This document shows positions 12,836 through 36,698 of a stretch of DNA of 64,000 bases, piece by piece. Within the stretch, counting starts at the first letter, position 1. Each line of letters opens with the position of its first letter. The position numbers were made by a program, and so were the translations under genes. The stretch is from Schizochytrium sp. TIO01. Lineage: Eukaryota; Sar; Bigyra; Thraustochytrida; Thraustochytriidae. Location: the NCBI GenBank assembly GCA_004764695.1, contig SMSO01000006.1, positions 139,859 to 203,858 on the forward strand, given 5' to 3'. Below the pieces are notes generated by a model. It ran no database searches. It was not told the DNA's origin and worked only from the letters and a program-made list of their open reading frames with translations.

Positions 12836-14875
12836 ATGTACTTGAGCCCTCACGTTGAGTCCAAGGACGACGAGTTTGATGATTTGTCACCCGGTAGCCT
12901 TGGAAGCGCTGGTGGCCTAAACTCATCTTCCAATCGACAGCGAGCACTCGAGGAACAGAAAAAGCGCCTGATGCGAAAGCAGCAGATTCGCCGTGGCTCT
13001 GCAGGAACTGTGCAAGCTAACCGTGCCTTCACTGGTGCGGCTAAAAAGATTTCTGTGAATAAGGCTGGGTCCTCGTTTCGAAACTTCTCAACTCCTAAAG
13101 CTATCGACCCGCTTGAGGGAGAGGAAGAAGATGACGATGCAGGTCTTCGCAAGACAGGCTACGCGGACAGCTTTCGCGGATCAAGTCGCAATGCCAGTGG
13201 ATCCTATGGAGGCGTTTATGAAGCACTTCACCAGCCCCAACACCGCTCGTCTTCTCTGTCTGCGAATGAATCGTTCACAGATGCACGTGTCGCAAATGTA
13301 AAAACTGTGAACCGACCCATTGAAGAATTTGATTCTGAGCGACGAGGAGAAGTAGAGAGCAAGTATGCCTCCTCCAATAACTCTATTCCCATCGTTGAAA
13401 CCAAACGGAGCGAAATTCCTCAAATTGTGAACGCATATGATCGCAGCCCGGCTGCTGATATTGAGGACGAATTCGACAGTGCTGGAGGTACAGATGAAAT
13501 CCCTCGCAAATCATCTGTTTCAAGCAGCAAGGCTCGCTCTCAAAAAAAGAAGGATTCTTCGTCAAACAGCTCGACCTCTAGTTCGAGCAAGTCGAAATCA
13601 CGCTCCGGATCCATGGCTAGCAAGTCAAGTTCGAAGTCTTCGAGCCGACGTCGCAACTACAATTCGGATGAAATCGCAGAAGAGGATAGTGGAGAAGTCT
13701 CTCAGGAAGCTGACCTTGACCAGCAGCCAGTTGTACGTCGCAAAGAGTCTAGTGCTACTGCTAGCCGTCGTCAGCACCGGTCGAGCGAACAACGGGTATC
13801 TTCTAAGCGCCCGGACGCAGCTCGCCGGGACGACAATTCTGCTTCTGAAGATGAGGATGCGGGTGAAATGATTGTTCCGCGTCCGGCCAAGAAGTCAACG
13901 AGAGTTAAAAAGGTCTCAGAGAAGACGGCAAAGTCGCGGAAGAATATTGAGGGAAAGACAATGGAACCTGGGGTTATTCCCAGCAAGCCAGATGAACGTT
14001 CCGAAGAAGAATTCGAGGATGAACACAAAGCGTTCGAGGATGACTATATCTCCCCTCAAGCGAACATGAGTAGTCCAAAGGAACAACCTGAGCTTGACCT
14101 ATCGGATATGCGGGCATTCCTTATGAAGCCTCTACCCAAAGAGTATGGTGTCGTTCAGTGCTATATTGAGCGCAACAAAAGTGGAGCTCACAAGCTTTAC
14201 CCCGAGTTCCAGGTTTTCCTAAAGGACGGTGACCGTTTCCTCATGAGTGGAAAGAAACGTGCCAAGAACCGCACAACAAACTATGTCGTGACAATGGACC
14301 CGAAGGACTATGCCCGCGAGTCACCAAACTGCTTAGGCAAACTTCGCTCTAACTTCATTGGCACAGAATTTCAGATCTTTGACAAGGGCGTTAACCCAAA
14401 AAATGCCGATCCAGATTCGCTCCACGTAGGTACTACGCCAATTCGAGAGGAGCTTGGAGCAATCCTATACAACTCAAATGTTCTCGGATCCCGAGGACCG
14501 CGTAAGATGCGAGTCGCGATTCCTGCAATCGACGACGCTGGGAAACGCAAGAGTGTGCGGCCATCTCGAAAGAATGAGGAACTACTTACACGCTTCAAAG
14601 ACCGCGACTTGTGTGATGTTGTTGAACTCATTAACAAACCTCCTCGTTGGAATGACCATGTTGGAGCCTATGTTCTCAACTTCAATGGTCGTGTCACAAT
14701 GGCTTCTGTGAAGAATTTTCAGCTAATCACTGCAGAGAATGAAGATGACGTTATTCTTACCTTTGGGCGCTGTGGAACCAATTTGTTTTCAATGGATGTG
14801 GCTTATCCCCTCAGTATTTTCCAGGCCTTTTGTATTGCGATGTCTTCGGCAAGCAGTAAGCTTGCCTGCGAGTAG
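12836..14875 (+). CDS. Tubby-like protein
   Basis: 679 residues from the ATG at 12836. Residues 1 to about 420 are disordered, rich in Ser/Arg/Lys and acidic clusters (poly-Ser with KSKSRS motifs). The C-terminal 260 residues are a full tubby domain: MRAFLMKPLP, SGKKRAKNRTTNYVVTMDP, GKLRSNFIGTEFQIFDKGVNP, then VLNFNGRVTMASVKNFQLI, and the family's typical end YPLSIFQAFCIAMSSASSKLACE split over the last residues. The basic KKRAK segment matches the region where mouse tubby binds PI(4,5)P2. Tubby/TULP proteins tether to membrane phosphoinositides and, in ciliated cells, deliver membrane proteins to cilia with IFT-A. The long N-terminus has no F-box, unlike plant TLPs. Identification is secure; a ciliary role is inferred. 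Confidence 0.95.
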   Translation: MYLSPHVESKDDEFDDLSPGSLGSAGGLNSSSNRQRALEEQKKRLMRKQQIRRGSAGTVQANRAFTGAAKKISVNKAGSSFRNFSTPKAIDPLEGEEEDDDAGLRKTGYADSFRGSSRNASGSYGGVYEALHQPQHRSSSLSANESFTDARVANVKTVNRPIEEFDSERRGEVESKYASSNNSIPIVETKRSEIPQIVNAYDRSPAADIEDEFDSAGGTDEIPRKSSVSSSKARSQKKKDSSSNSSTSSSSKSKSRSGSMASKSSSKSSSRRRNYNSDEIAEEDSGEVSQEADLDQQPVVRRKESSATASRRQHRSSEQRVSSKRPDAARRDDNSASEDEDAGEMIVPRPAKKSTRVKKVSEKTAKSRKNIEGKTMEPGVIPSKPDERSEEEFEDEHKAFEDDYISPQANMSSPKEQPELDLSDMRAFLMKPLPKEYGVVQCYIERNKSGAHKLYPEFQVFLKDGDRFLMSGKKRAKNRTTNYVVTMDPKDYARESPNCLGKLRSNFIGTEFQIFDKGVNPKNADPDSLHVGTTPIREELGAILYNSNVLGSRGPRKMRVAIPAIDDAGKRKSVRPSRKNEELLTRFKDRDLCDVVELINKPPRWNDHVGAYVLNFNGRVTMASVKNFQLITAENEDDVILTFGRCGTNLFSMDVAYPLSIFQAFCIAMSSASSKLACE

Positions 14876-27459: not shown

Positions 27460-30400
27460 TCACTCGTCCGGAGATACCTTTTTGTTGCCTCTCTTGCGCT
27501 TCCGGGCTTCGATCTTCTTGCGTTGGCGTTCCTTTTGGGCATCTAGTTCTTGTTTGAGTTGTTCCTGGGCAGACTGGTGTTCTTCTTTCAAACGCGTAAC
27601 CTTATGCTCTACAGAAGAAATCTTTTTGAAAACATTGGTGACCTTACTCGCGATTTCTTGTTGACGAGCTTCTGCTGCTGCTCGTTCTCGATTGGCCTTT
27701 TCCTCGGTTTGATGAAGGCGATCGCGAATTTTCGCGCGCCGCTGATCGAGATTTTTGAGAGCTGCATCTCGATTCTCCTGCTTCTTTGCCTCCAAGCGAG
27801 CCAGGGCTGTTTCATATTCTTCCTGAGAGGGTGCCTCTGCTCGCATTTTTTCTCTTTCTTCCTCAAAATCACACTCGAGCTTAGTTAGAGCCTCTTCAAC
27901 CAGTGGCGAGGTAGTACCAACTGCACTTTCCTGCTTTGCATCATCAATGACCATGGCAATTCGTTGTTTACGGCGTTCTGCAAATTTATTACGATGCTCC
28001 TCGCGCCTGTCGACAAGATTAGAGTGCATGCTGGCCAGAGCTGCATGGTATTCTCCTTTAATTTCTTCCCGAGGATCATCCAAAGTCTCACGCAATGCTC
28101 CTTTTTTCTGTAGCTGAGTTATCATGTGTGAAAACTCCTCACGGTCAGCTACATTTGAAAACCTTTTTTCAAATGATTTGAGCAATGCAATGTCACTACT
28201 TCCAACAATTTCTCCGGAGCGAACTCGTATGCGTTGCAAGAGTGCCACTGTTTTCGCAATTGTTTTGAGTTGCTCAAGATTGCGACAAAGATCTTCTTCA
28301 GGTAACTTGCCAGTGTATTGTTCTCGCAACCTCTCTAAGTCAGACTTTACATTTTTGATAAGCTCTTCTTCTAGAAGAACCTCCTCCGACTCAAGTGCAC
28401 TTGCTGCCTCTGGATCAAGCTCACGCAATTCTTCTTTTTCAACCTCGTCAATTTGTTGTCTAGCTTCTTCAGCTTCTTCCTCAAGTGCTTCTTTTTCTCT
28501 GCCAAGTCGTTCCTTTTCAGAGAGTAGTTCTTTCTCTTGATCTTCAATGTGCTTCACTTTCTCAGCAAGTTCGATTTCACGAGCTTCTAAGGAAGCTGCT
28601 TTTCTGTCTACGTCAGCTTGCTGCCTATGTAGGTACTTTTCTTGTGCATGCAAACGCTTTATTTTTATTCGAATTGCAATGCCTACCGCAATACAGACAA
28701 CTACAAGCGAGCACGAAAGGCCGATTATGAGATTCAAATTTGAGCTTGTTGTCAGACCCCGCAAAGTTGTGAACGAAGAAGTGTCAATTTGCACGTACGA
28801 GACAGCGCTGCAGCTATCTGTTGCATTTACAAGCCCCGCTGCAAACATTTGTTGTGCAAGAGGGTAGAGAAACAAAATGTCACTAAGACGGCTAGCAACA
28901 AGCGGCTGCAATGCGCTGGTCATACGAACTTCAAAGTCAATTTCCACCCCCCAGGCTCCGTTGTCTGCTGATGTAGCGTCCACCTCGAGCACCTGGACGT
29001 TGGCAATCGTGAACTCGGTTTGCAAATCACTATTCAAAGCTTGCATCACGGCTACTCTGAACAAATATACATCAAAAGTCTCTTCAGTTGCACCCAATAG
29101 AATGATACGTGTGCGTAGATATACAAGATTTGAGTCTGTTGGCGGAAGAACCTCCTCCTTCACGACGCCGAAGTCTAAGACAAGCTCTGGACTTGGCCCT
29201 TTACCTTGGCCAATGGCACGGAGACGCAAGATGTGTCTCCCTGGTCGTGTTATGCTAAGCCACTTTCCACTAGGTACTAGTTTCACGAGGCCTTGATCAT
29301 AGTTTGCAAGACTTGGAGCCGCAGCGCATGTTGTTGTGCATGAGCTGGATACATCCGCTTTATGTGAAAGAAGGATCGTGGCTCCTGATCCCGCTTCAAG
29401 TTTGATGTCCAAAGGAAGGGCCCACTGTCCACTCGTAATTTCCTCAGTAGCATCACCAAACGTAGCAGTAGGTGTTGGCCAGTGAGTTGTCTCAGCGCTG
29501 GAGTATGAACTTTCGATCATAGGCAAGAAACATTCAAAGGTAATCTGGCCATCACTGTTCTGGTCAACAGCATCCCAGGTTCCTCCATTTCGCTCACATG
29601 ATTGGCGTGACGTAAAAACACAAGTTGGGTCGCTGTCATTGCTAGATCCAGATCCTTGCGAAGCATATGTACCGCCCTTAGCCTCACAAAGCTTCTGAAA
29701 ATCTTCATCATCCAAGTATTCGTCTTCCCAGAAGAATTCATACGAATCAGACGAATAATCATCACTTTCATCGCGAGAACCCCAGCATGGATACGAGAAT
29801 TTGGTGTTTGTATCAGGGTCCTTAACTTGCAAAGGGTTTTCTCCCGGTTCGAAGCTTACAAAAACAGGTTCTCCTTCCCATTGCTTCAAATAATTACGGC
29901 TGAAGTACTGGTATGAAGTCTCCTCAGCTCCAATTATGGCATCACAATCAACAGGTTGGCTAGTATTGTCCCCTGAATTTTTCAGTTGTTTGAACACACG
30001 TGAGCAAGTACTCCAGATTTCTTCACACTCAGAAGTGCAGAGCCTTTGCGGAGCTTCTTGACCAGCTTCGTTGTCAATATAGCATGGAGGTAGAGCTGTC
30101 TCGCATAGTCTCTGCTTCCATCGTCTACGACATGCGTTGTCAGGCTCATTTTCTGTGGCATTGCGAACTATATTGAGGCCAGGTCTTATGGCTTGTACCT
30201 GTTCCGCTTGTGTGAGTGACCCATACACCCAAACGAAGTCTACGTCCATGACATCATCACACGCTGTGCCTTCCACACGCCTTTCACAACGACCCCAATC
30301 ATGTGATGTTTGTGTAGGTGCTGCATTTGCCACTATGTAAAATCGTTCATCATCCAGGTGCAACAGGAGCATGAGAAATACAAACGCTATAAAGCGTGCA

Positions 30401-30462
30401 TGTACTCTGTACGAAGGTTTGTTCGTTTGGTGAGACTGGGACAAGTTGCTGTTTGTCATCAT
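27460..30462 (-). CDS. Type I membrane protein with Frizzled-like Cys-rich ectodomain and cytoplasmic coiled coil
   Basis: 1000 residues from ATG 30462. A hydrophobic segment (FIAFVFLMLLLHL, residues 24-36) with a later ANAAPT serves as signal peptide or anchor. Residues about 55-175 are Cys-rich with a pattern like the Frizzled CRD (CRRRWKQRLCETALPPC, then CTSECEEIWSTC). Two short repeats of the form C-x3-GGT[YW] follow near 260-310; the second contains DQNSDGQIT, a calcium-loop-like sequence. A Ser/Thr-rich ectodomain leads to one membrane helix at about 577-598 (LIIGLSCSLVVVCIAVGIAI). The remaining 400 residues are charged coiled coil (EKERLGREKEALEEEAEEAR and onward), ending basic. A cell-surface receptor or adhesion protein tied to an internal scaffold is inferred; no orthologue recognised. 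Confidence 0.8.
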   Translation of the reverse strand: MMTNSNLSQSHQTNKPSYRVHARFIAFVFLMLLLHLDDERFYIVANAAPTQTSHDWGRCERRVEGTACDDVMDVDFVWVYGSLTQAEQVQAIRPGLNIVRNATENEPDNACRRRWKQRLCETALPPCYIDNEAGQEAPQRLCTSECEEIWSTCSRVFKQLKNSGDNTSQPVDCDAIIGAEETSYQYFSRNYLKQWEGEPVFVSFEPGENPLQVKDPDTNTKFSYPCWGSRDESDDYSSDSYEFFWEDEYLDDEDFQKLCEAKGGTYASQGSGSSNDSDPTCVFTSRQSCERNGGTWDAVDQNSDGQITFECFLPMIESSYSSAETTHWPTPTATFGDATEEITSGQWALPLDIKLEAGSGATILLSHKADVSSSCTTTCAAAPSLANYDQGLVKLVPSGKWLSITRPGRHILRLRAIGQGKGPSPELVLDFGVVKEEVLPPTDSNLVYLRTRIILLGATEETFDVYLFRVAVMQALNSDLQTEFTIANVQVLEVDATSADNGAWGVEIDFEVRMTSALQPLVASRLSDILFLYPLAQQMFAAGLVNATDSCSAVSYVQIDTSSFTTLRGLTTSSNLNLIIGLSCSLVVVCIAVGIAIRIKIKRLHAQEKYLHRQQADVDRKAASLEAREIELAEKVKHIEDQEKELLSEKERLGREKEALEEEAEEARQQIDEVEKEELRELDPEAASALESEEVLLEEELIKNVKSDLERLREQYTGKLPEEDLCRNLEQLKTIAKTVALLQRIRVRSGEIVGSSDIALLKSFEKRFSNVADREEFSHMITQLQKKGALRETLDDPREEIKGEYHAALASMHSNLVDRREEHRNKFAERRKQRIAMVIDDAKQESAVGTTSPLVEEALTKLECDFEEEREKMRAEAPSQEEYETALARLEAKKQENRDAALKNLDQRRAKIRDRLHQTEEKANRERAAAEARQQEIASKVTNVFKKISSVEHKVTRLKEEHQSAQEQLKQELDAQKERQRKKIEARKRKRGNKKVSPDE

Positions 30463-31517: not shown

Positions 31518-34500
31518 TCAAGGGAGGTTGACTTTGAAACATCCTACACCAGAGTTGTGAAATGCAACCACAAAATCTACTTGTCTTCTACGTTGTGATC
31601 TCTGTTTCTGGCAGCTCTTCCGCCCAAATTCTTCAATAATAAGTGCACAATTTGCTTGCCCCAAGTATGGAGATGCGTCGATGTGTCCAAGAGAGGCTAG
31701 GGATGTCGCAAGCATCACAGGCTCATTATCTACAGCGCATGACCATACTTCGAACGAACCATCGAACAAAGTGGTAACAAAGACTGACTGGTCAAATTTT
31801 ACCGCAATAGATGTATAGCCTGCATGTGCAATACGGAGTGTCCTTGGTTCACAGGGGGCATCATTCAGCAACCACCAGAAAAGTTCACCATTCATTGCAC
31901 CGCTTACAGCATTTCCATCGGGGAGGAAGCCTATAGACAAAACCCAATCATTATGGCCCTTAAGCACTTGAACCTTTTCCAATTTCTCAAGATCCCATAG
32001 AATGACTTGCCGATCTTGTGAAGAGCTCAAGAGCCACTGTGCATCGCTGGAGACAACTAAGCTTCGCACAGCGCCAAGATGACCTTTAAGCTCTGCAACC
32101 AATTGTTGATCAAGTAACGAAGTAATTCGGATGGACCAATCCTCACCAGCAGTTACGGCGAAATGATCCTTGAACACAACTACATCGTTAATCCAGTCAT
32201 CGTGCACCTTAATGGTGTAAGAAGGATTGTTTCGCAATTTACCTCCCTTAACTTCACAAACTTCCTGAACAACCAAATAGCCATCTTGTGCTGCCACTAC
32301 AACGCCAGAATTGCTAAAACAAGGCGCGATGCCTGTAATGGAAGCACGTCTTTTGACAATAGGACTACAGTCAGTGCCAATGCTTTCGCTCGCAATACTT
32401 ACTGTACCATCTGTCCATCCTAACAGCAACATGTTAGCAGCTTGGGTCATACAGGTGGCTCGATATTCGGCAACACCCTCCGCACGAAAAGCAAGGCTAA
32501 CTGCCCATTTACTCATGAGAGAATGTCCTAACTGAGGTGCCCTATGGCTCACCTCGGAGTTCCGTGACTGAGTATATCCCAAATCTCCATCTGTCAAAAC
32601 CTCAGGTGAATTCCATGTCGCAGGACTTAGGTCCCAAACACACACAGTGTTATCGAATGAGCAAGTTACCATACTTTGTAACGAGCAAGAGAGAGCCATT
32701 GTTCGACATGTTCGTGCATGCGCATCGAATATGCGCAATGTTGAGCCAGAGTCAAGGTCCCAGGCGCGGCAGGTGTTGTCATCACTTGATGAGAACAAAA
32801 TCAAACGTTCGCTGTCTTCAGTCGGTAGTCCATTCGTGTGAACCTCATAACTGCCAATCAAATCGCTAAGTGTGTGAATTGTTAAGCCTCGCAAGTCTCC
32901 TGAATGACCTGCAAAGACCCGCACATGGCTTCCATCCCCAAGATCCCAAAGGTGAACACACATATCTTCGCAAGCAGCCGCAATAAGACGCTGCGATTGT
33001 CCCAAAGGTCGGAAAATATGAAGTCCATTGTAAGGTTTGGAGCCCATACCTAAAACATGTAAAAGTTCAAAACTTTTGGGCTCCCATACATTTGACGTTT
33101 CCCAAACACGAACATCGTTGTTGGAGCCTGCAGCTACAATCAAGGGCGCCTTGGTAAATGATGGCTCGCATTCCTCATCAACATATGAAGCATCAACTGA
33201 GTTTACACCACTGATGCAATCTGTAAGGGTATGGAGAAGTTCATGCTGTTCACACGGCAAAGTTGCATCTCCTTGAAAATGCCCTGATATACTTGGAATA
33301 TGCCAAACCTTGACATCGGTAGCTTTTGAGCCGCTAACAATCAAGGGCAACGGGTGCCTTGTATTCTCATCATCATTAATGCCAAGGCGAATAGGACATA
33401 CTTGGTAAACCCAGTGTTTGTGTGCGTTCTGAATGTCTTCAATCATCACACCAGAATGTGCGTTCCAGACACGAATCATGCCACCGTAAAATCCAGAAAC
33501 GATAAAGTTCGACGCCGAGCCCACAGGACGGTGAACAGCTAGGCGCGTGACACCGCCAATATCAGGACCGGAATTTTTATTCAAGGTTTGAACAAGGCGA
33601 CCGGTTCTAAATTCCCAAATACGCAGCTCCCCATCGGCGGCTCCAGTCACAAAGTGCTCAGCGTCAACTGTGCGCACAAAATAAGGATTTTTATGGTGAA
33701 CAGTAAAGGAAAGCATGAGGTCTCCATCGCCTGGCGTGAGATATGGCTGGTAGCTCATAATCGAGCCTAACGCTTCCTCTCGCAATGATGCAACCGTCTT
33801 AAGAAGTCTCTGGAGGTAAGCAGCCTCCTTTGAAGAGTCCGCCAATCGATTCCATAACTGCTCGACAAGACATCCCGCATACCTGATAACCGATGGAAGT
33901 GAGAGAAGTAGACACCGACAAAGAACATGAAGCTGCTGACGTATATCGGCACCAAAAATAGGGTCATCTTTAGCCAGAACTAATTGGTCAATCACATCTG
34001 CTAACATGCTGCCATGAGCTGCTGCACTTAAAAATGAGAAGTCAAAAACTAATTCAGGTAAGTTCTGACGAACTTGTGGAGGCGAGTGTCTTGTTTGATA
34101 GATGAGTTCTCTCAGCACACGAATATTCGGGCGTCCATCTCCGATCCAGGGGGGTTGTGAGAGTGTCATACGGTCTGCTGAAAGCAAAATAGTTTGTTGT
34201 CCTACAGGGTGACTGAGCGTGTATTCACTGGCTATGCTTTGGTTGCCAAAATATTCCGCAAGCTCTGCGTGACGAGGTGCGTATCGATGCAAGGCCTGTT
34301 CGTAAAATTGACGATGAAACCACGCCTTTGTGTTACCTGCCTTGCGCACAAGAAATGGTTCGAGGTCCGCTAGCAAGCGCGTTACAACGAGAGGTGGGAT
34401 CCGAGGTACAGGGGGTACCCACCATTGAAACGTCACGTCAAGAACACGGTCATCCAAAGATAGAAGATCTTCGAGTTCTGGTTGGGAAAGTCCATCTCGT

Positions 34501-36698
34501 GCACTCGTCAATAGCCCGAGGGCGACTTCAGTAAAAAGAGCACCATGCTTATGCTCAAGGTCCTGAAAGAATGTCTCAAGTAGACTCACTACGTCATTAA
34601 CATGGGCCCAGGTGGAGGGTGGGGATGTATATGACGCCCATTGGGTCATTTGATTGAACACTGTTCGCAGCATAAGGTAGGTAGGTTCCTCGGCCCGACT
34701 AAGTATGTCTTTACAGAAGAGTCTTTGTTCCTCCGTGTCGCGACGGTGCTCTTGACTAAGCCAAGCATCTAGAACGTCATCAATATCTGTAAGGTGGATG
34801 ACTGGTACAGAAATATCTTTGCATTGGAGAATTGCTCGTGCTCTCTCTAGAGGCTTACCTTTTCCTTCAACAAGGGCCGTAACAAGAATATGGCAGTGTT
34901 CAGGAACCTCAGTTGCTTGAGGTAGCCAGATCAAGGATGATCCCACAGGAAGCTGATCGAGGGAGTCAAAGACTATGCACAACGGGCTTTGCTTAGTGCC
35001 TCGAGCCATGAAATCAGTTTTGAAGGCGTCGCATATCTCGTCAAAGCTAGCGGCAGGATCGGGTGGACTGCCTCCATAGATACTGCTTATTTGCTCGCAA
35101 ACAGAGTAGAGAAGCCGCTCCAGAGAGCTGCTTTCTGAAGTTGTACCAATAAATCGAACAACAAAATTAAATTGGCAAGGTAGCAATTTGAGAACCTGTG
35201 CAGCCAAAGCAGTCTTGCCTGACCCAGAGATTCCGCTCACGATACATGCAGATTGAGTAATGACAGAATTCACAACCTCCATGACAAGACCATGGCGGCC
35301 TACAAAGTCCTTTTGCTTACGAGATGCAAACCGAGCATGGGCTCGTGCCTCATCAAAGATCGACCCTTCGACCTCCTGTGCTGGTAAGTGAGTAATTTGT
35401 TGTGCATACGATGCGCAAAGCTTTTGCAAAATATTTTTTATGTAGCTTGCATGAGACTTAGATGTCACAGGATCAATTCCGTTCTCTTTCCAAGGAACTC
35501 GTGCTTCTATTACCTCGGATGCATGATCACTGGCCCAGAGCCGCAAATGTTGGAGGCAATCTTGAGCGTTGTCCACCGTATCACGATACCCAGGGTGTAA
35601 TATTTCTCCTTCTAAATGCCTCGAGATTAAGAGAGACACTGACCCTGGGTGAGAAAAGCCAAGTCTCATTTCAAGCTCAGTCACCGATGCTTCAAATGGT
35701 CTTCTTGCCTCTATGTTGTTTCCATGTAAGTTTTCTGCGCATCTGCGTAAAGCATGTTGCATTGGCTCAAAACACTTTGACCACCACTCCTGGCTTGCAG
35801 CGTCTTGGACCTCTGGAGAATACCCACGGATTACTTCATAGACAGGGCGCAAACGATACACAGCAGGGACTTTGTTCGTGTCGAGTCGAAACCATTCTAC
35901 TAACTGGTCATGGTCAGTATCAGCATCACAATGGTCAAGGAGTAATTCAAATTCGCTCTGTTCGATTTCTGCTGGAAATGGACGGAAGCCATATTTATCA
36001 CCAAGGATGCCGACAAAGTGCATAGCCGCGCTCGTCGTTAGACATCTCTGAAGTTCACGCAAGCAGATTTCAGAGGTCTGATGCTGTGCACTGATCTCAG
36101 AGTTAATACCCCATCGCATCTCGCTAAGCTCGAATTCATATCCAAAATCTCGACAAAATGAACGCAATAATGGTACACAAAACGCAACGAAACAATCTCT
36201 CTCGGATCGAGTATCTGTAAATGTAGATGACATAAATGAGCGCACGATTTCCGGTGGGATTTTGAGATCTTCTTCGATAGAGTGCCCGCTAAGAACGCGT
36301 TCACGAACATCTTCGCTAACCGGAGATTTTGCGCTTGCTTCATCTCTAATGTTTCTTTGTGTCAGAGTTGTTCCTAACGTCTGCGCTGCACCTGAAGCCC
36401 CGAAAACAGCCTTTTCGAGTTTCGCCAACTCCATTCTCTGGTCCCATACATCGTAATCAGCATCGCTGCGGCTCTTCCGTGATACCAGTTTTGCGCTCAC
36501 GCTTGTTCTAAGCTTGGAGACTCTGTTTGACGTCTTGTTGAAGTGGGCTTTGGCCTTGTTAGACCCTTTGACGCTTCCTCTTAGCAGCTGTTCCTTCGAC
36601 ACCTCAAGCTCTTCTTTATTTTGAGCAATGATATCCTCTTGTACTCGTGCAAGGGCATTATCGTTCCCGCGTTTTCGTGTTGATGCTTTCTGGCCCAT
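31518..36698 (-). CDS. DUF4062-NACHT-WD40 STAND ATPase (NWD1-like)
   Basis: 1726 residues, one exon, ATG at 36698. It starts MGQKAS, a good N-myristoylation signal (Gly2, Ser6), then a basic coiled segment. Residues about 150-260 match the DUF4062-type N-terminal domain of NWD1/TEP1-like proteins (FMSSTFTDTRSERD, ELSEMRWGI, FVGILGDKYGFRP). The NACHT-type ATPase has Walker A GISGSGKT at about 488-495 and a Walker B-like CIVFDSLDQLP near 576. Helical winged-helix/superhelical sequence runs to about 1000. Roughly twelve WD40 blades fill the C-terminus (for example FSSSDDNTCRAWDLDSG, LLSSSQDRQVILWDLEKLE), enough for two propellers. STAND ATPases oligomerise on ligand binding; the propellers are the likely sensor and DUF4062 the output or adaptor. 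Function in this organism is unknown; innate immunity or cell-death control is one possibility. Confidence 0.92.
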   Translation of the reverse strand: MGQKASTRKRGNDNALARVQEDIIAQNKEELEVSKEQLLRGSVKGSNKAKAHFNKTSNRVSKLRTSVSAKLVSRKSRSDADYDVWDQRMELAKLEKAVFGASGAAQTLGTTLTQRNIRDEASAKSPVSEDVRERVLSGHSIEEDLKIPPEIVRSFMSSTFTDTRSERDCFVAFCVPLLRSFCRDFGYEFELSEMRWGINSEISAQHQTSEICLRELQRCLTTSAAMHFVGILGDKYGFRPFPAEIEQSEFELLLDHCDADTDHDQLVEWFRLDTNKVPAVYRLRPVYEVIRGYSPEVQDAASQEWWSKCFEPMQHALRRCAENLHGNNIEARRPFEASVTELEMRLGFSHPGSVSLLISRHLEGEILHPGYRDTVDNAQDCLQHLRLWASDHASEVIEARVPWKENGIDPVTSKSHASYIKNILQKLCASYAQQITHLPAQEVEGSIFDEARAHARFASRKQKDFVGRHGLVMEVVNSVITQSACIVSGISGSGKTALAAQVLKLLPCQFNFVVRFIGTTSESSSLERLLYSVCEQISSIYGGSPPDPAASFDEICDAFKTDFMARGTKQSPLCIVFDSLDQLPVGSSLIWLPQATEVPEHCHILVTALVEGKGKPLERARAILQCKDISVPVIHLTDIDDVLDAWLSQEHRRDTEEQRLFCKDILSRAEEPTYLMLRTVFNQMTQWASYTSPPSTWAHVNDVVSLLETFFQDLEHKHGALFTEVALGLLTSARDGLSQPELEDLLSLDDRVLDVTFQWWVPPVPRIPPLVVTRLLADLEPFLVRKAGNTKAWFHRQFYEQALHRYAPRHAELAEYFGNQSIASEYTLSHPVGQQTILLSADRMTLSQPPWIGDGRPNIRVLRELIYQTRHSPPQVRQNLPELVFDFSFLSAAAHGSMLADVIDQLVLAKDDPIFGADIRQQLHVLCRCLLLSLPSVIRYAGCLVEQLWNRLADSSKEAAYLQRLLKTVASLREEALGSIMSYQPYLTPGDGDLMLSFTVHHKNPYFVRTVDAEHFVTGAADGELRIWEFRTGRLVQTLNKNSGPDIGGVTRLAVHRPVGSASNFIVSGFYGGMIRVWNAHSGVMIEDIQNAHKHWVYQVCPIRLGINDDENTRHPLPLIVSGSKATDVKVWHIPSISGHFQGDATLPCEQHELLHTLTDCISGVNSVDASYVDEECEPSFTKAPLIVAAGSNNDVRVWETSNVWEPKSFELLHVLGMGSKPYNGLHIFRPLGQSQRLIAAACEDMCVHLWDLGDGSHVRVFAGHSGDLRGLTIHTLSDLIGSYEVHTNGLPTEDSERLILFSSSDDNTCRAWDLDSGSTLRIFDAHARTCRTMALSCSLQSMVTCSFDNTVCVWDLSPATWNSPEVLTDGDLGYTQSRNSEVSHRAPQLGHSLMSKWAVSLAFRAEGVAEYRATCMTQAANMLLLGWTDGTVSIASESIGTDCSPIVKRRASITGIAPCFSNSGVVVAAQDGYLVVQEVCEVKGGKLRNNPSYTIKVHDDWINDVVVFKDHFAVTAGEDWSIRITSLLDQQLVAELKGHLGAVRSLVVSSDAQWLLSSSQDRQVILWDLEKLEKVQVLKGHNDWVLSIGFLPDGNAVSGAMNGELFWWLLNDAPCEPRTLRIAHAGYTSIAVKFDQSVFVTTLFDGSFEVWSCAVDNEPVMLATSLASLGHIDASPYLGQANCALIIEEFGRKSCQKQRSQRRRQVDFVVAFHNSGVGCFKVNLP

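What the first reader, a model, noticed from the sequence alone, without database searches (positions are those of the whole stretch)
31518..36698. Giant DUF4062-NACHT-WD40 STAND ATPase with a myristoylation signal
Seen: MGQKAS N-terminus, SSTF-type DUF4062 block, GISGSGKT Walker A, DSLDQL Walker B-like, about twelve WD40 blades, all in one uninterrupted 5.2-kb exon. Known: this layout is that of NWD1/TEP1-like STAND proteins, relatives of NLR immune sensors. Inference: a membrane-tethered signal-sensing ATPase in a protist, with the propellers as sensor. Lipid anchoring would be an unusual addition to this family.
Basis: partly seen in the sequence, partly recalled or inferred. Interest (0 to 1): 0.65.

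Follow-up and report, generated by a model that had tools for sequence, protein, structure and literature searches.

The report
Lipid-anchored TIR-like STAND sensor protein
A ciliated protist carries a large Apaf-1-like sensor protein whose front end looks like an NAD-cutting enzyme and starts with a fatty-acid attachment signal; two of its four relatives in the same genome start the same way, so membrane tethering looks like a recurring trait of this protein family there rather than an oddity of one gene.

Summary
The gene is real: one 1726-codon exon (31518-36698, minus strand) encoding DUF4062-NACHT-winged helix-WD40, with an in-frame TAA two codons before the ATG. Profile hits and an AlphaFold model (residues 1-1010, pTM 0.80) confirm the STAND core; the best structural matches are a STAND ATPase and full-length Apaf-1. 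The catalytic Glu (TEP1 E1008) is E343 here and is invariant in 52 of 52 relatives, although three TEP1 active-site arginines are replaced. The MGQKASTRKR start is not isolated: three of five DUF4062 proteins in this genome start MGxxxS, against none of the other 44 gene starts sampled. NMT and UNC119 genes are present. Lipid anchoring is not unprecedented: human nephrocystin-3, a DUF4062-NACHT protein, is myristoylated. Bacteria and Asgard archaea share the layout but mostly lack the roughly 150-residue N-terminal extension. Best reading: a membrane-tethered, Apaf-1-like switch that clusters TIR-like domains to cleave NAD+ or signal. The architecture is shown; lipidation, catalysis and immune role are inferred. 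New variant of a known kind.

The parts
31518..36698 (-). Complete single-exon ORF, 1726 aa plus stop
36669..36698 (-). Residues 1-10 MGQKASTRKR: N-myristoylation-type start (Gly2, Ser6) plus basic cluster (K4, R8, K9, R10), Src-like
   Evidence: fits the PROSITE PS00008 pattern; 3 of 5 DUF4062 proteins vs 0 of 44 other sampled starts
36309..36698 (-). N-terminal helical, basic extension (residues 1-130; helices 4-40, 43-74, 79-99 predicted), absent from most prokaryotic relatives
   Evidence: median first-Met to SSTF-motif distance 11 residues in 77 prokaryotic ORFs, about 155 here
35391..36248 (-). DUF4062 = TIR-like domain, residues 151-436 (bA 151-158, aA 164-184, bB 188-192, aB 208-222, bC 225-232, aC 339-349, bD 354-363, aD 378-392, bE 395-402, aE 414-436)
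   Evidence: (TEP1 TIR-like domain 11gz_A, E 1.6e-9)
35694..35981 (-). Long insert between bC and aC (residues 240-335), diagnostic of the long-insert DUF4062 group
   Evidence: Y236-E343 spacing 82-132 in this group, 30-42 in nearly all others
35670..35672 (-). Codon of Glu343, equivalent of catalytic Glu1008 of human TEP1; invariant in 52 of 52 aligned sequences
34599..35321 (-). NACHT/STAND ATPase core, residues 460-700; Walker A GISGSGKT 489-496, Walker B CIVFDSLDQL 574-583
34263..34589 (-). NWD1-type winged helix, residues 704-812, with near-invariant His795 (WHD/MHD-type histidine position)
33747..34262 (-). Helical arm linking the winged helix to the propellers, residues 813-984
   Evidence: Apaf-1 alignment reaches residue 943
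32619..33746 (-). First WD40 propeller region, residues about 985-1360, seven recognisable blade ends
31521..32501 (-). Second WD40 propeller region, residues about 1400-1726, more degenerate

Best explanation
It is a membrane-tethered STAND switch with a TIR-like effector. The N-terminal glycine is N-myristoylated and, helped by nearby basic residues (Src-like), holds the protein on an inner membrane leaflet, with UNC119 as the likely solubilising carrier. At rest the two WD40 propellers fold back on an ADP-bound NACHT-winged-helix core. A ligand or disturbance sensed by the propellers allows nucleotide exchange and ring assembly, as in Apaf-1; this brings the DUF4062 TIR-like domains together at the membrane, and Glu343 cleaves NAD+ (or the assembled domains signal without catalysis). 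Shown: layout, STAND core, TIR-like domain with the catalytic Glu kept, a myristoylation-type start recurring in paralogues, presence of NMT and UNC119 genes. Inferred: lipidation, oligomerisation, NAD cleavage, and a role in defence or cell death.
For: Domain profiles; relation to the solved TEP1 TIR-like domain, whose fold and NADase activity are reported in PMC13174449; E343 invariant in 52/52 and aligned to TEP1 E1008, with R908/R954/R976 used to fix the numbering; TIR topology and STAND fold in an AlphaFold model, pTM 0.80, Z 19.0 to full-length Apaf-1 over 130-943; Walker A, Walker B and WHD histidine conserved; myristoylation-type start in 3 of 5 DUF4062 proteins against 0 of 44 other sampled starts, composition expectation 0.0036 per protein for MG..S, chance of 3 or more in 5 about 5e-7 if independent; NMT, UNC119-like and PDE6D-like genes, ciliary IFT46; NPHP3 precedent and Src precedent for myristate plus basic patch with UNC119.
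Against: The three TEP1 active-site arginines are replaced by T161, H206 or Q207, and K235; T or S at 161 and K at 235 are common in this group, so the pocket differs from TEP1. Purified human NWD1, NWD2 and NPHP3 did not cleave NAD+ in the same study. The closest paralogue (C30, 35% identity over 130-891) does not start with MG in its open frame. The WD40 repeats show no sign of rapid repeat-based diversification. No expression or proteomic data.
Confidence: 0.55

Rival explanations
1. A myristoylated flagellar/ciliary scaffold working like nephrocystin-3: UNC119-ARL3 delivers it to the cilium, and the TIR-like domain is catalytically silent and serves assembly.
For: NPHP3 is myristoylated, depends on UNC119/ARL3 and needs a neighbouring coiled coil; human NPHP3 was inactive as NADase; the genome has UNC119-like, PDE6D-like and IFT46 genes; the N-terminal 100 residues are predicted helical.
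Against: The NPHP3-like protein of this genome is another gene (C34: DUF4062-NACHT-TPR, TPR_NPHP3 97.6 bits against a cut-off of 100, start MGACASKS). The window protein lies in the other DUF4062 group. Its basic Src-like start points to plasma membrane rather than cilium (inference). E343 is fully conserved.
Confidence: 0.2
2. An NWD1-like cytosolic housekeeping scaffold (for example enzyme assembly, as proposed for Nwd1 and the purinosome); MGQKAS is chance and not lipidated.
For: HTH_NWD1 over cut-off; Nwd1 paper PMC7186558, abstract only; nearest paralogue lacks the signal.
Against: MG..S in three of five family members, with basic residues or a Cys as possible second signal, is far above chance.
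Confidence: 0.2
3. The apparent start is wrong and an unseen 5' exon makes Gly2 internal.
For: AG immediately precedes the ATG, so a splice acceptor there is formally possible.
Against: In-frame TAA 2 codons upstream; no pyrimidine tract, no consensus donors in the 900 nt upstream, no coding-like ORF upstream; ATG context A at -3 and G at +4; the same type of start in two paralogues.
Confidence: 0.05

Closest known systems
NWD1/NWD2 (animal NACHT-WD40 proteins)
   Same: DUF4062-NACHT-NWD1-type winged helix-WD40 order; HTH_NWD1 model above cut-off
   Different: Myristoylation-type start and about 150-residue basic helical N-terminal extension; not tested whether human NWD1 has the long insert or an N-terminal Gly signal
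TEP1 (vault NADase)
   Same: TIR-like DUF4062 with catalytic Glu, NACHT, WD40
   Different: TEP1 has the short spacing (about 31 residues between bC Tyr and catalytic Glu), TROVE/vWA domains in front, and three active-site Arg; C35 of this genome is the TEP1-type relative
Nephrocystin-3 (NPHP3)
   Same: DUF4062-NACHT with N-terminal myristate and helical N-terminal region
   Different: TPR instead of WD40; the closer counterpart in this genome is the C34 gene, which has the short spacing
Bacterial and Asgard DUF4062-NACHT-WD40 proteins (for example L075, L049, L088, L055)
   Same: Same long-insert DUF4062, NACHT, winged helix, WD40 order; 25-31% identity
   Different: Most start directly at DUF4062, with no extension and no lipid signal
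Swarozyc (KpSwz)
   Same: DUF4062 TIR-like NADase with conserved Glu
   Different: No NACHT or WD40; portal-sensing auxiliary domain
Apaf-1/Dark, and plant CNL group B NLRs
   Same: STAND core with two WD40 propellers (Apaf-1); predicted N-terminal acylation of group B plant CNLs (PMC6312357)
   Different: CARD or coiled-coil effector instead of TIR-like DUF4062

Membership tests
DUF4062 / TIR-like NADase family | Sequence relation to DUF4062 and the TEP1 TIR-like domain | tested here: met
   25.8 bits over cut-off; 11gz_A E 1.6e-9
DUF4062 / TIR-like NADase family | Conserved catalytic Glu in aC | tested here: met
   E343 = TEP1 E1008, 52/52
DUF4062 / TIR-like NADase family | TIR-like fold by structure comparison of the domain alone | tested here: inconclusive
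   TIR topology in the model, but the domain was not searched alone and no TIR chain appears in the lists, which the NACHT core fills
DUF4062 / TIR-like NADase family | NAD+ hydrolysis | not testable with these tools
   needs an enzyme assay
STAND (NACHT) ATPase | Walker A, Walker B, winged helix with His | tested here: met
   GISGSGKT, FDSLDQL, H795; Z 22.6 to STAND 6mfv, 19.0 to Apaf-1
STAND (NACHT) ATPase | Pfam NACHT model above cut-off | tested here: inconclusive
   20.8 bits, cut-off 26.7; related model NPHP3_N 26.4 over 24.8
STAND (NACHT) ATPase | Sensor-1 arginine after the Walker B strand (common in NLRs, not required of all STAND) | tested here: inconclusive
   VTAL at 606-609 without Arg; relatives mostly VSTL or similar, so a family trait rather than decay; the alignment there is ungapped but not checked by structure
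NWD1-like | HTH_NWD1 winged helix | tested here: met
   30.4 bits over 27
NWD1-like | Orthology to animal NWD1 | not tested
   no animal proteomes in the collections
NPHP3 | TPR sensor | tested here: not met
   WD40 sensor
TEP1 | Short-spacing DUF4062; placement with TEP1 in the tree | tested here: not met
   separated by a branch with support 100/99; spacing 107 vs about 31
TEP1 | Three active-site Arg (R908, R954, R976) | tested here: not met
   T161, H206/Q207, K235
N-myristoylated proteins | Gly2 with permissive residues 3-7 (PS00008) | tested here: met
   MGQKAST
N-myristoylated proteins | Myristate on Gly2 | not testable with these tools
   needs labelling or mass spectrometry; no trained predictor available

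The most novel reading that the evidence does not exclude
Membrane anchoring is a general, recurring property of DUF4062-STAND proteins: several members in one protist, with different sensors (WD40, TPR), are myristoylated TIR-like NADases that assemble resistosome-like rings on membranes, and mammalian NPHP3 is a catalytically silenced survivor of that class.
Probability: 0.25. Interest if true: 0.75.

Novelty: new variant of a known kind. Interest (0 to 1): 0.5.

Why it matters
DUF4062 was only recently shown to be a TIR-like NADase in bacteria and in the vault protein TEP1, while its relatives NWD1, NWD2 and NPHP3 appeared inactive. This genome offers five DUF4062 proteins of both groups, three with lipid-anchor-type starts and all with a Glu at the catalytic position. 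If real, membrane tethering would link the ciliary protein NPHP3 to NAD-cutting sensors, and G2A and E343A mutants would test directly whether location and catalysis belong together.

Tried and rejected
Viral-contig scan for relatives: 17 pattern hits, none confirmed. PADLOC: no match to the window protein. MVP (vault) search: nothing, but no control rang, so inconclusive. WD40 structure from two sequences was poor (pLDDT 48) and not used. A first MAFFT of four sequences misplaced the catalytic helix and made Glu215 look like the catalytic residue; TEP1 numbering and 52 sequences corrected this to Glu343. Horizontal transfer from bacteria was considered; without animal and other protist sequences, and with long branches, the tree cannot decide. 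Paper searches for lipid-anchored NACHT-WD40 proteins and for NACHT in labyrinthulomycetes gave nothing relevant; the library is incomplete.

Full report
WHAT IS THERE. The open frame 31518-36698 (minus) encodes 1726 residues without an intron. An in-frame TAA stands two codons before the ATG; the ATG has A at -3 and G at +4. The upstream 1.6 kb is poorer in GC (0.40 vs 0.47), carries only short ORFs and shows no consensus splice donor in the last 900 nt, so MGQKAS is the likely true N-terminus, though an AG directly before the ATG leaves a formal splice possibility.

DOMAINS. DUF4062 (25.8 bits), NPHP3_N-type P-loop (26.4) and HTH_NWD1 (30.4) pass their Pfam cut-offs; NACHT and AAA_16 fall short. 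WD40 is strong. AlphaFold on residues 1-1010 with 51 relatives gave pLDDT 80 and pTM 0.80; the core aligns to a STAND ATPase at Z 22.6 (361 residues, 3.9 A) and to full-length Apaf-1 at Z 19.0 (409 residues, 4.2 A; model 130-943). Walker A K495, Walker B D578 and the winged-helix His795 are conserved in nearly all relatives; no sensor-1 arginine is seen. Seven WD blade ends lie between 1027 and 1354 and a weaker second set follows, consistent with two propellers; the propeller model was too poor to use.

DUF4062 IS A TIR-LIKE NADASE FAMILY. A 2026 preprint (PMC13174449) reports that DUF4062 is a TIR-like family, that the bacterial system Swarozyc and human TEP1 cleave NAD+, and that TEP1 needs E1008. 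The window domain matches the solved TEP1 domain 11gz_A at E 1.6e-9. Chain position 115 of 11gz_A is TEP1 E1008; an offset of 893 is supported because positions 15, 61 and 83 are Arg, as expected for R908, R954 and R976. It is the second Glu of the SVTExE motif. In the window protein this is E343, on helix 339-349, and it is invariant in all 52 aligned sequences. The three TEP1 arginines are replaced (T161, H206/Q207, K235); Thr/Ser at 161 and Lys at 235 are common in the window's group. In the preprint, human NWD1, NWD2 and NPHP3 showed no activity, so catalysis here is a prediction, not a result.

TWO GROUPS. The distance from the bC tyrosine to the catalytic Glu is 82-132 residues in the window protein, C30, C33 (89) and about half of the prokaryotic relatives, and 30-42 in nearly all the others, including TEP1, C34 and C35; L068 (78), L061 (82) and L070 (93) are exceptions or border cases. 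A DUF4062 tree separates the TEP1/NPHP3 type with support 100/99; the window protein joins C30 (97/80) and C33 (96/92), but these branches are long and the joins may be attraction. Prokaryotic relatives, including a Lokiarchaeote, have the same DUF4062-NACHT-winged helix-WD40 layout, but the first Met lies a median of 11 residues before the SSTF motif against about 155 here. The N-terminal extension is therefore the distinctive addition.

THE LIPID SIGNAL. MGQKASTRKR fits PS00008 and adds four basic residues. The genome has five DUF4062 proteins: window/C5 MGQKASTRKR; C33 MGTSHSRSRR (ATG in an ACCATGG context); C34 MGACASKSTR (Cys4 as possible palmitoyl site); C35 MVRRWRN, starting at the domain; C30 MLPSRNS, start uncertain. 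Among 47 gene starts sampled from this genome the only PS00008 matches are these three; the composition expectation for MG..S is 0.0036 per protein, and three or more of five has chance about 5e-7. That number treats the starts as independent; common descent would weaken it, but then the signal would have been conserved while the rest of the N-terminal region diverged beyond alignment, which itself argues for function. The genome encodes NMT, UNC119-like and PDE6D-like proteins (told apart by sequence motifs from memory) and IFT46. Myristate plus basic patch with UNC119 cycling is the established Src mode (PMC5524651); myristate plus UNC119/ARL3 is the NPHP3 mode (PMC9266639, PMC6678300, PMC4868535). 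So lipid anchoring of a DUF4062-NACHT protein has a precedent; for a WD40-bearing, long-insert member I found no report in the library, which is a limited search.

HOW IT LIKELY WORKS. Best reading (0.55): a membrane-held Apaf-1-like switch whose propellers sense, whose NACHT core assembles and whose TIR-like domains act, by NAD+ cleavage or signalling. Whether the trigger is microbial is unknown. Against fast-evolving recognition: no repeat array at DNA level in this gene, whereas such an array does exist in a TIR-NACHT-WD40 locus of the same genome. The rivals are a flagellar scaffold (0.2) and an unlipidated NWD1-like scaffold (0.2).

STATUS. Observation confirmed; interpretation partly supported, with the 'unusual' lipid claim corrected and the effector domain identified. 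New variant of a known kind.

Noticed in passing
L128:1690-7644 (G000:C13:7316689-7322643): TIR_2-NPHP3_N frame (797 aa) followed, in another frame overlapping by about 40 nt, by about 25 copies of a 126-bp WD40 repeat at 84% matches: a TIR-NACHT-WD40 locus with homogenised repeats, like fungal HET-E-type NLRs.
   Followed up: partly
G000 genome-wide: 42 TIR_2 matches, many in open frames of about 850-1280 aa: a large TIR repertoire in a protist. Two were looked at: one frame (L130) has a long non-repetitive region before the TIR, one (L131) an acidic low-complexity region.
   Followed up: partly
L041:4046-8699 (G000:C33): DUF4062 frame (MGTSHS start) and NACHT-winged helix-TPR frame overlap by 35 nt in different frames: sequencing error, frameshift or decayed gene.
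   Followed up: partly
L006:2823-7142 (G000:C34): NPHP3-like DUF4062-NACHT-TPR protein with MGACASKS start: a good candidate for a protist nephrocystin-3.
   Followed up: partly
window 27460-30462 minus: Protein with hydrophobic N-terminus, Frizzled-type cysteine-rich domain (33.7 bits, cut-off 32.1), one likely transmembrane stretch and a long charged coiled-coil-like tail.
   Followed up: no
window 12836-14875 plus: Tub (Tubby) family protein, 282 bits.
   Followed up: no
L057:6962-11527 (Neobacillus niacini): Bacterial DUF4062-NACHT-WD40 protein that also matches the APAF-1 helical domain (APAF1_C 34.2 bits, cut-off 22.8).
   Followed up: no
G000:C35 (L005): TEP1-type DUF4062-NACHT-WD40 protein (11gz_A E 8e-35), while a search for the vault protein MVP found nothing (inconclusive).
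   Followed up: partly
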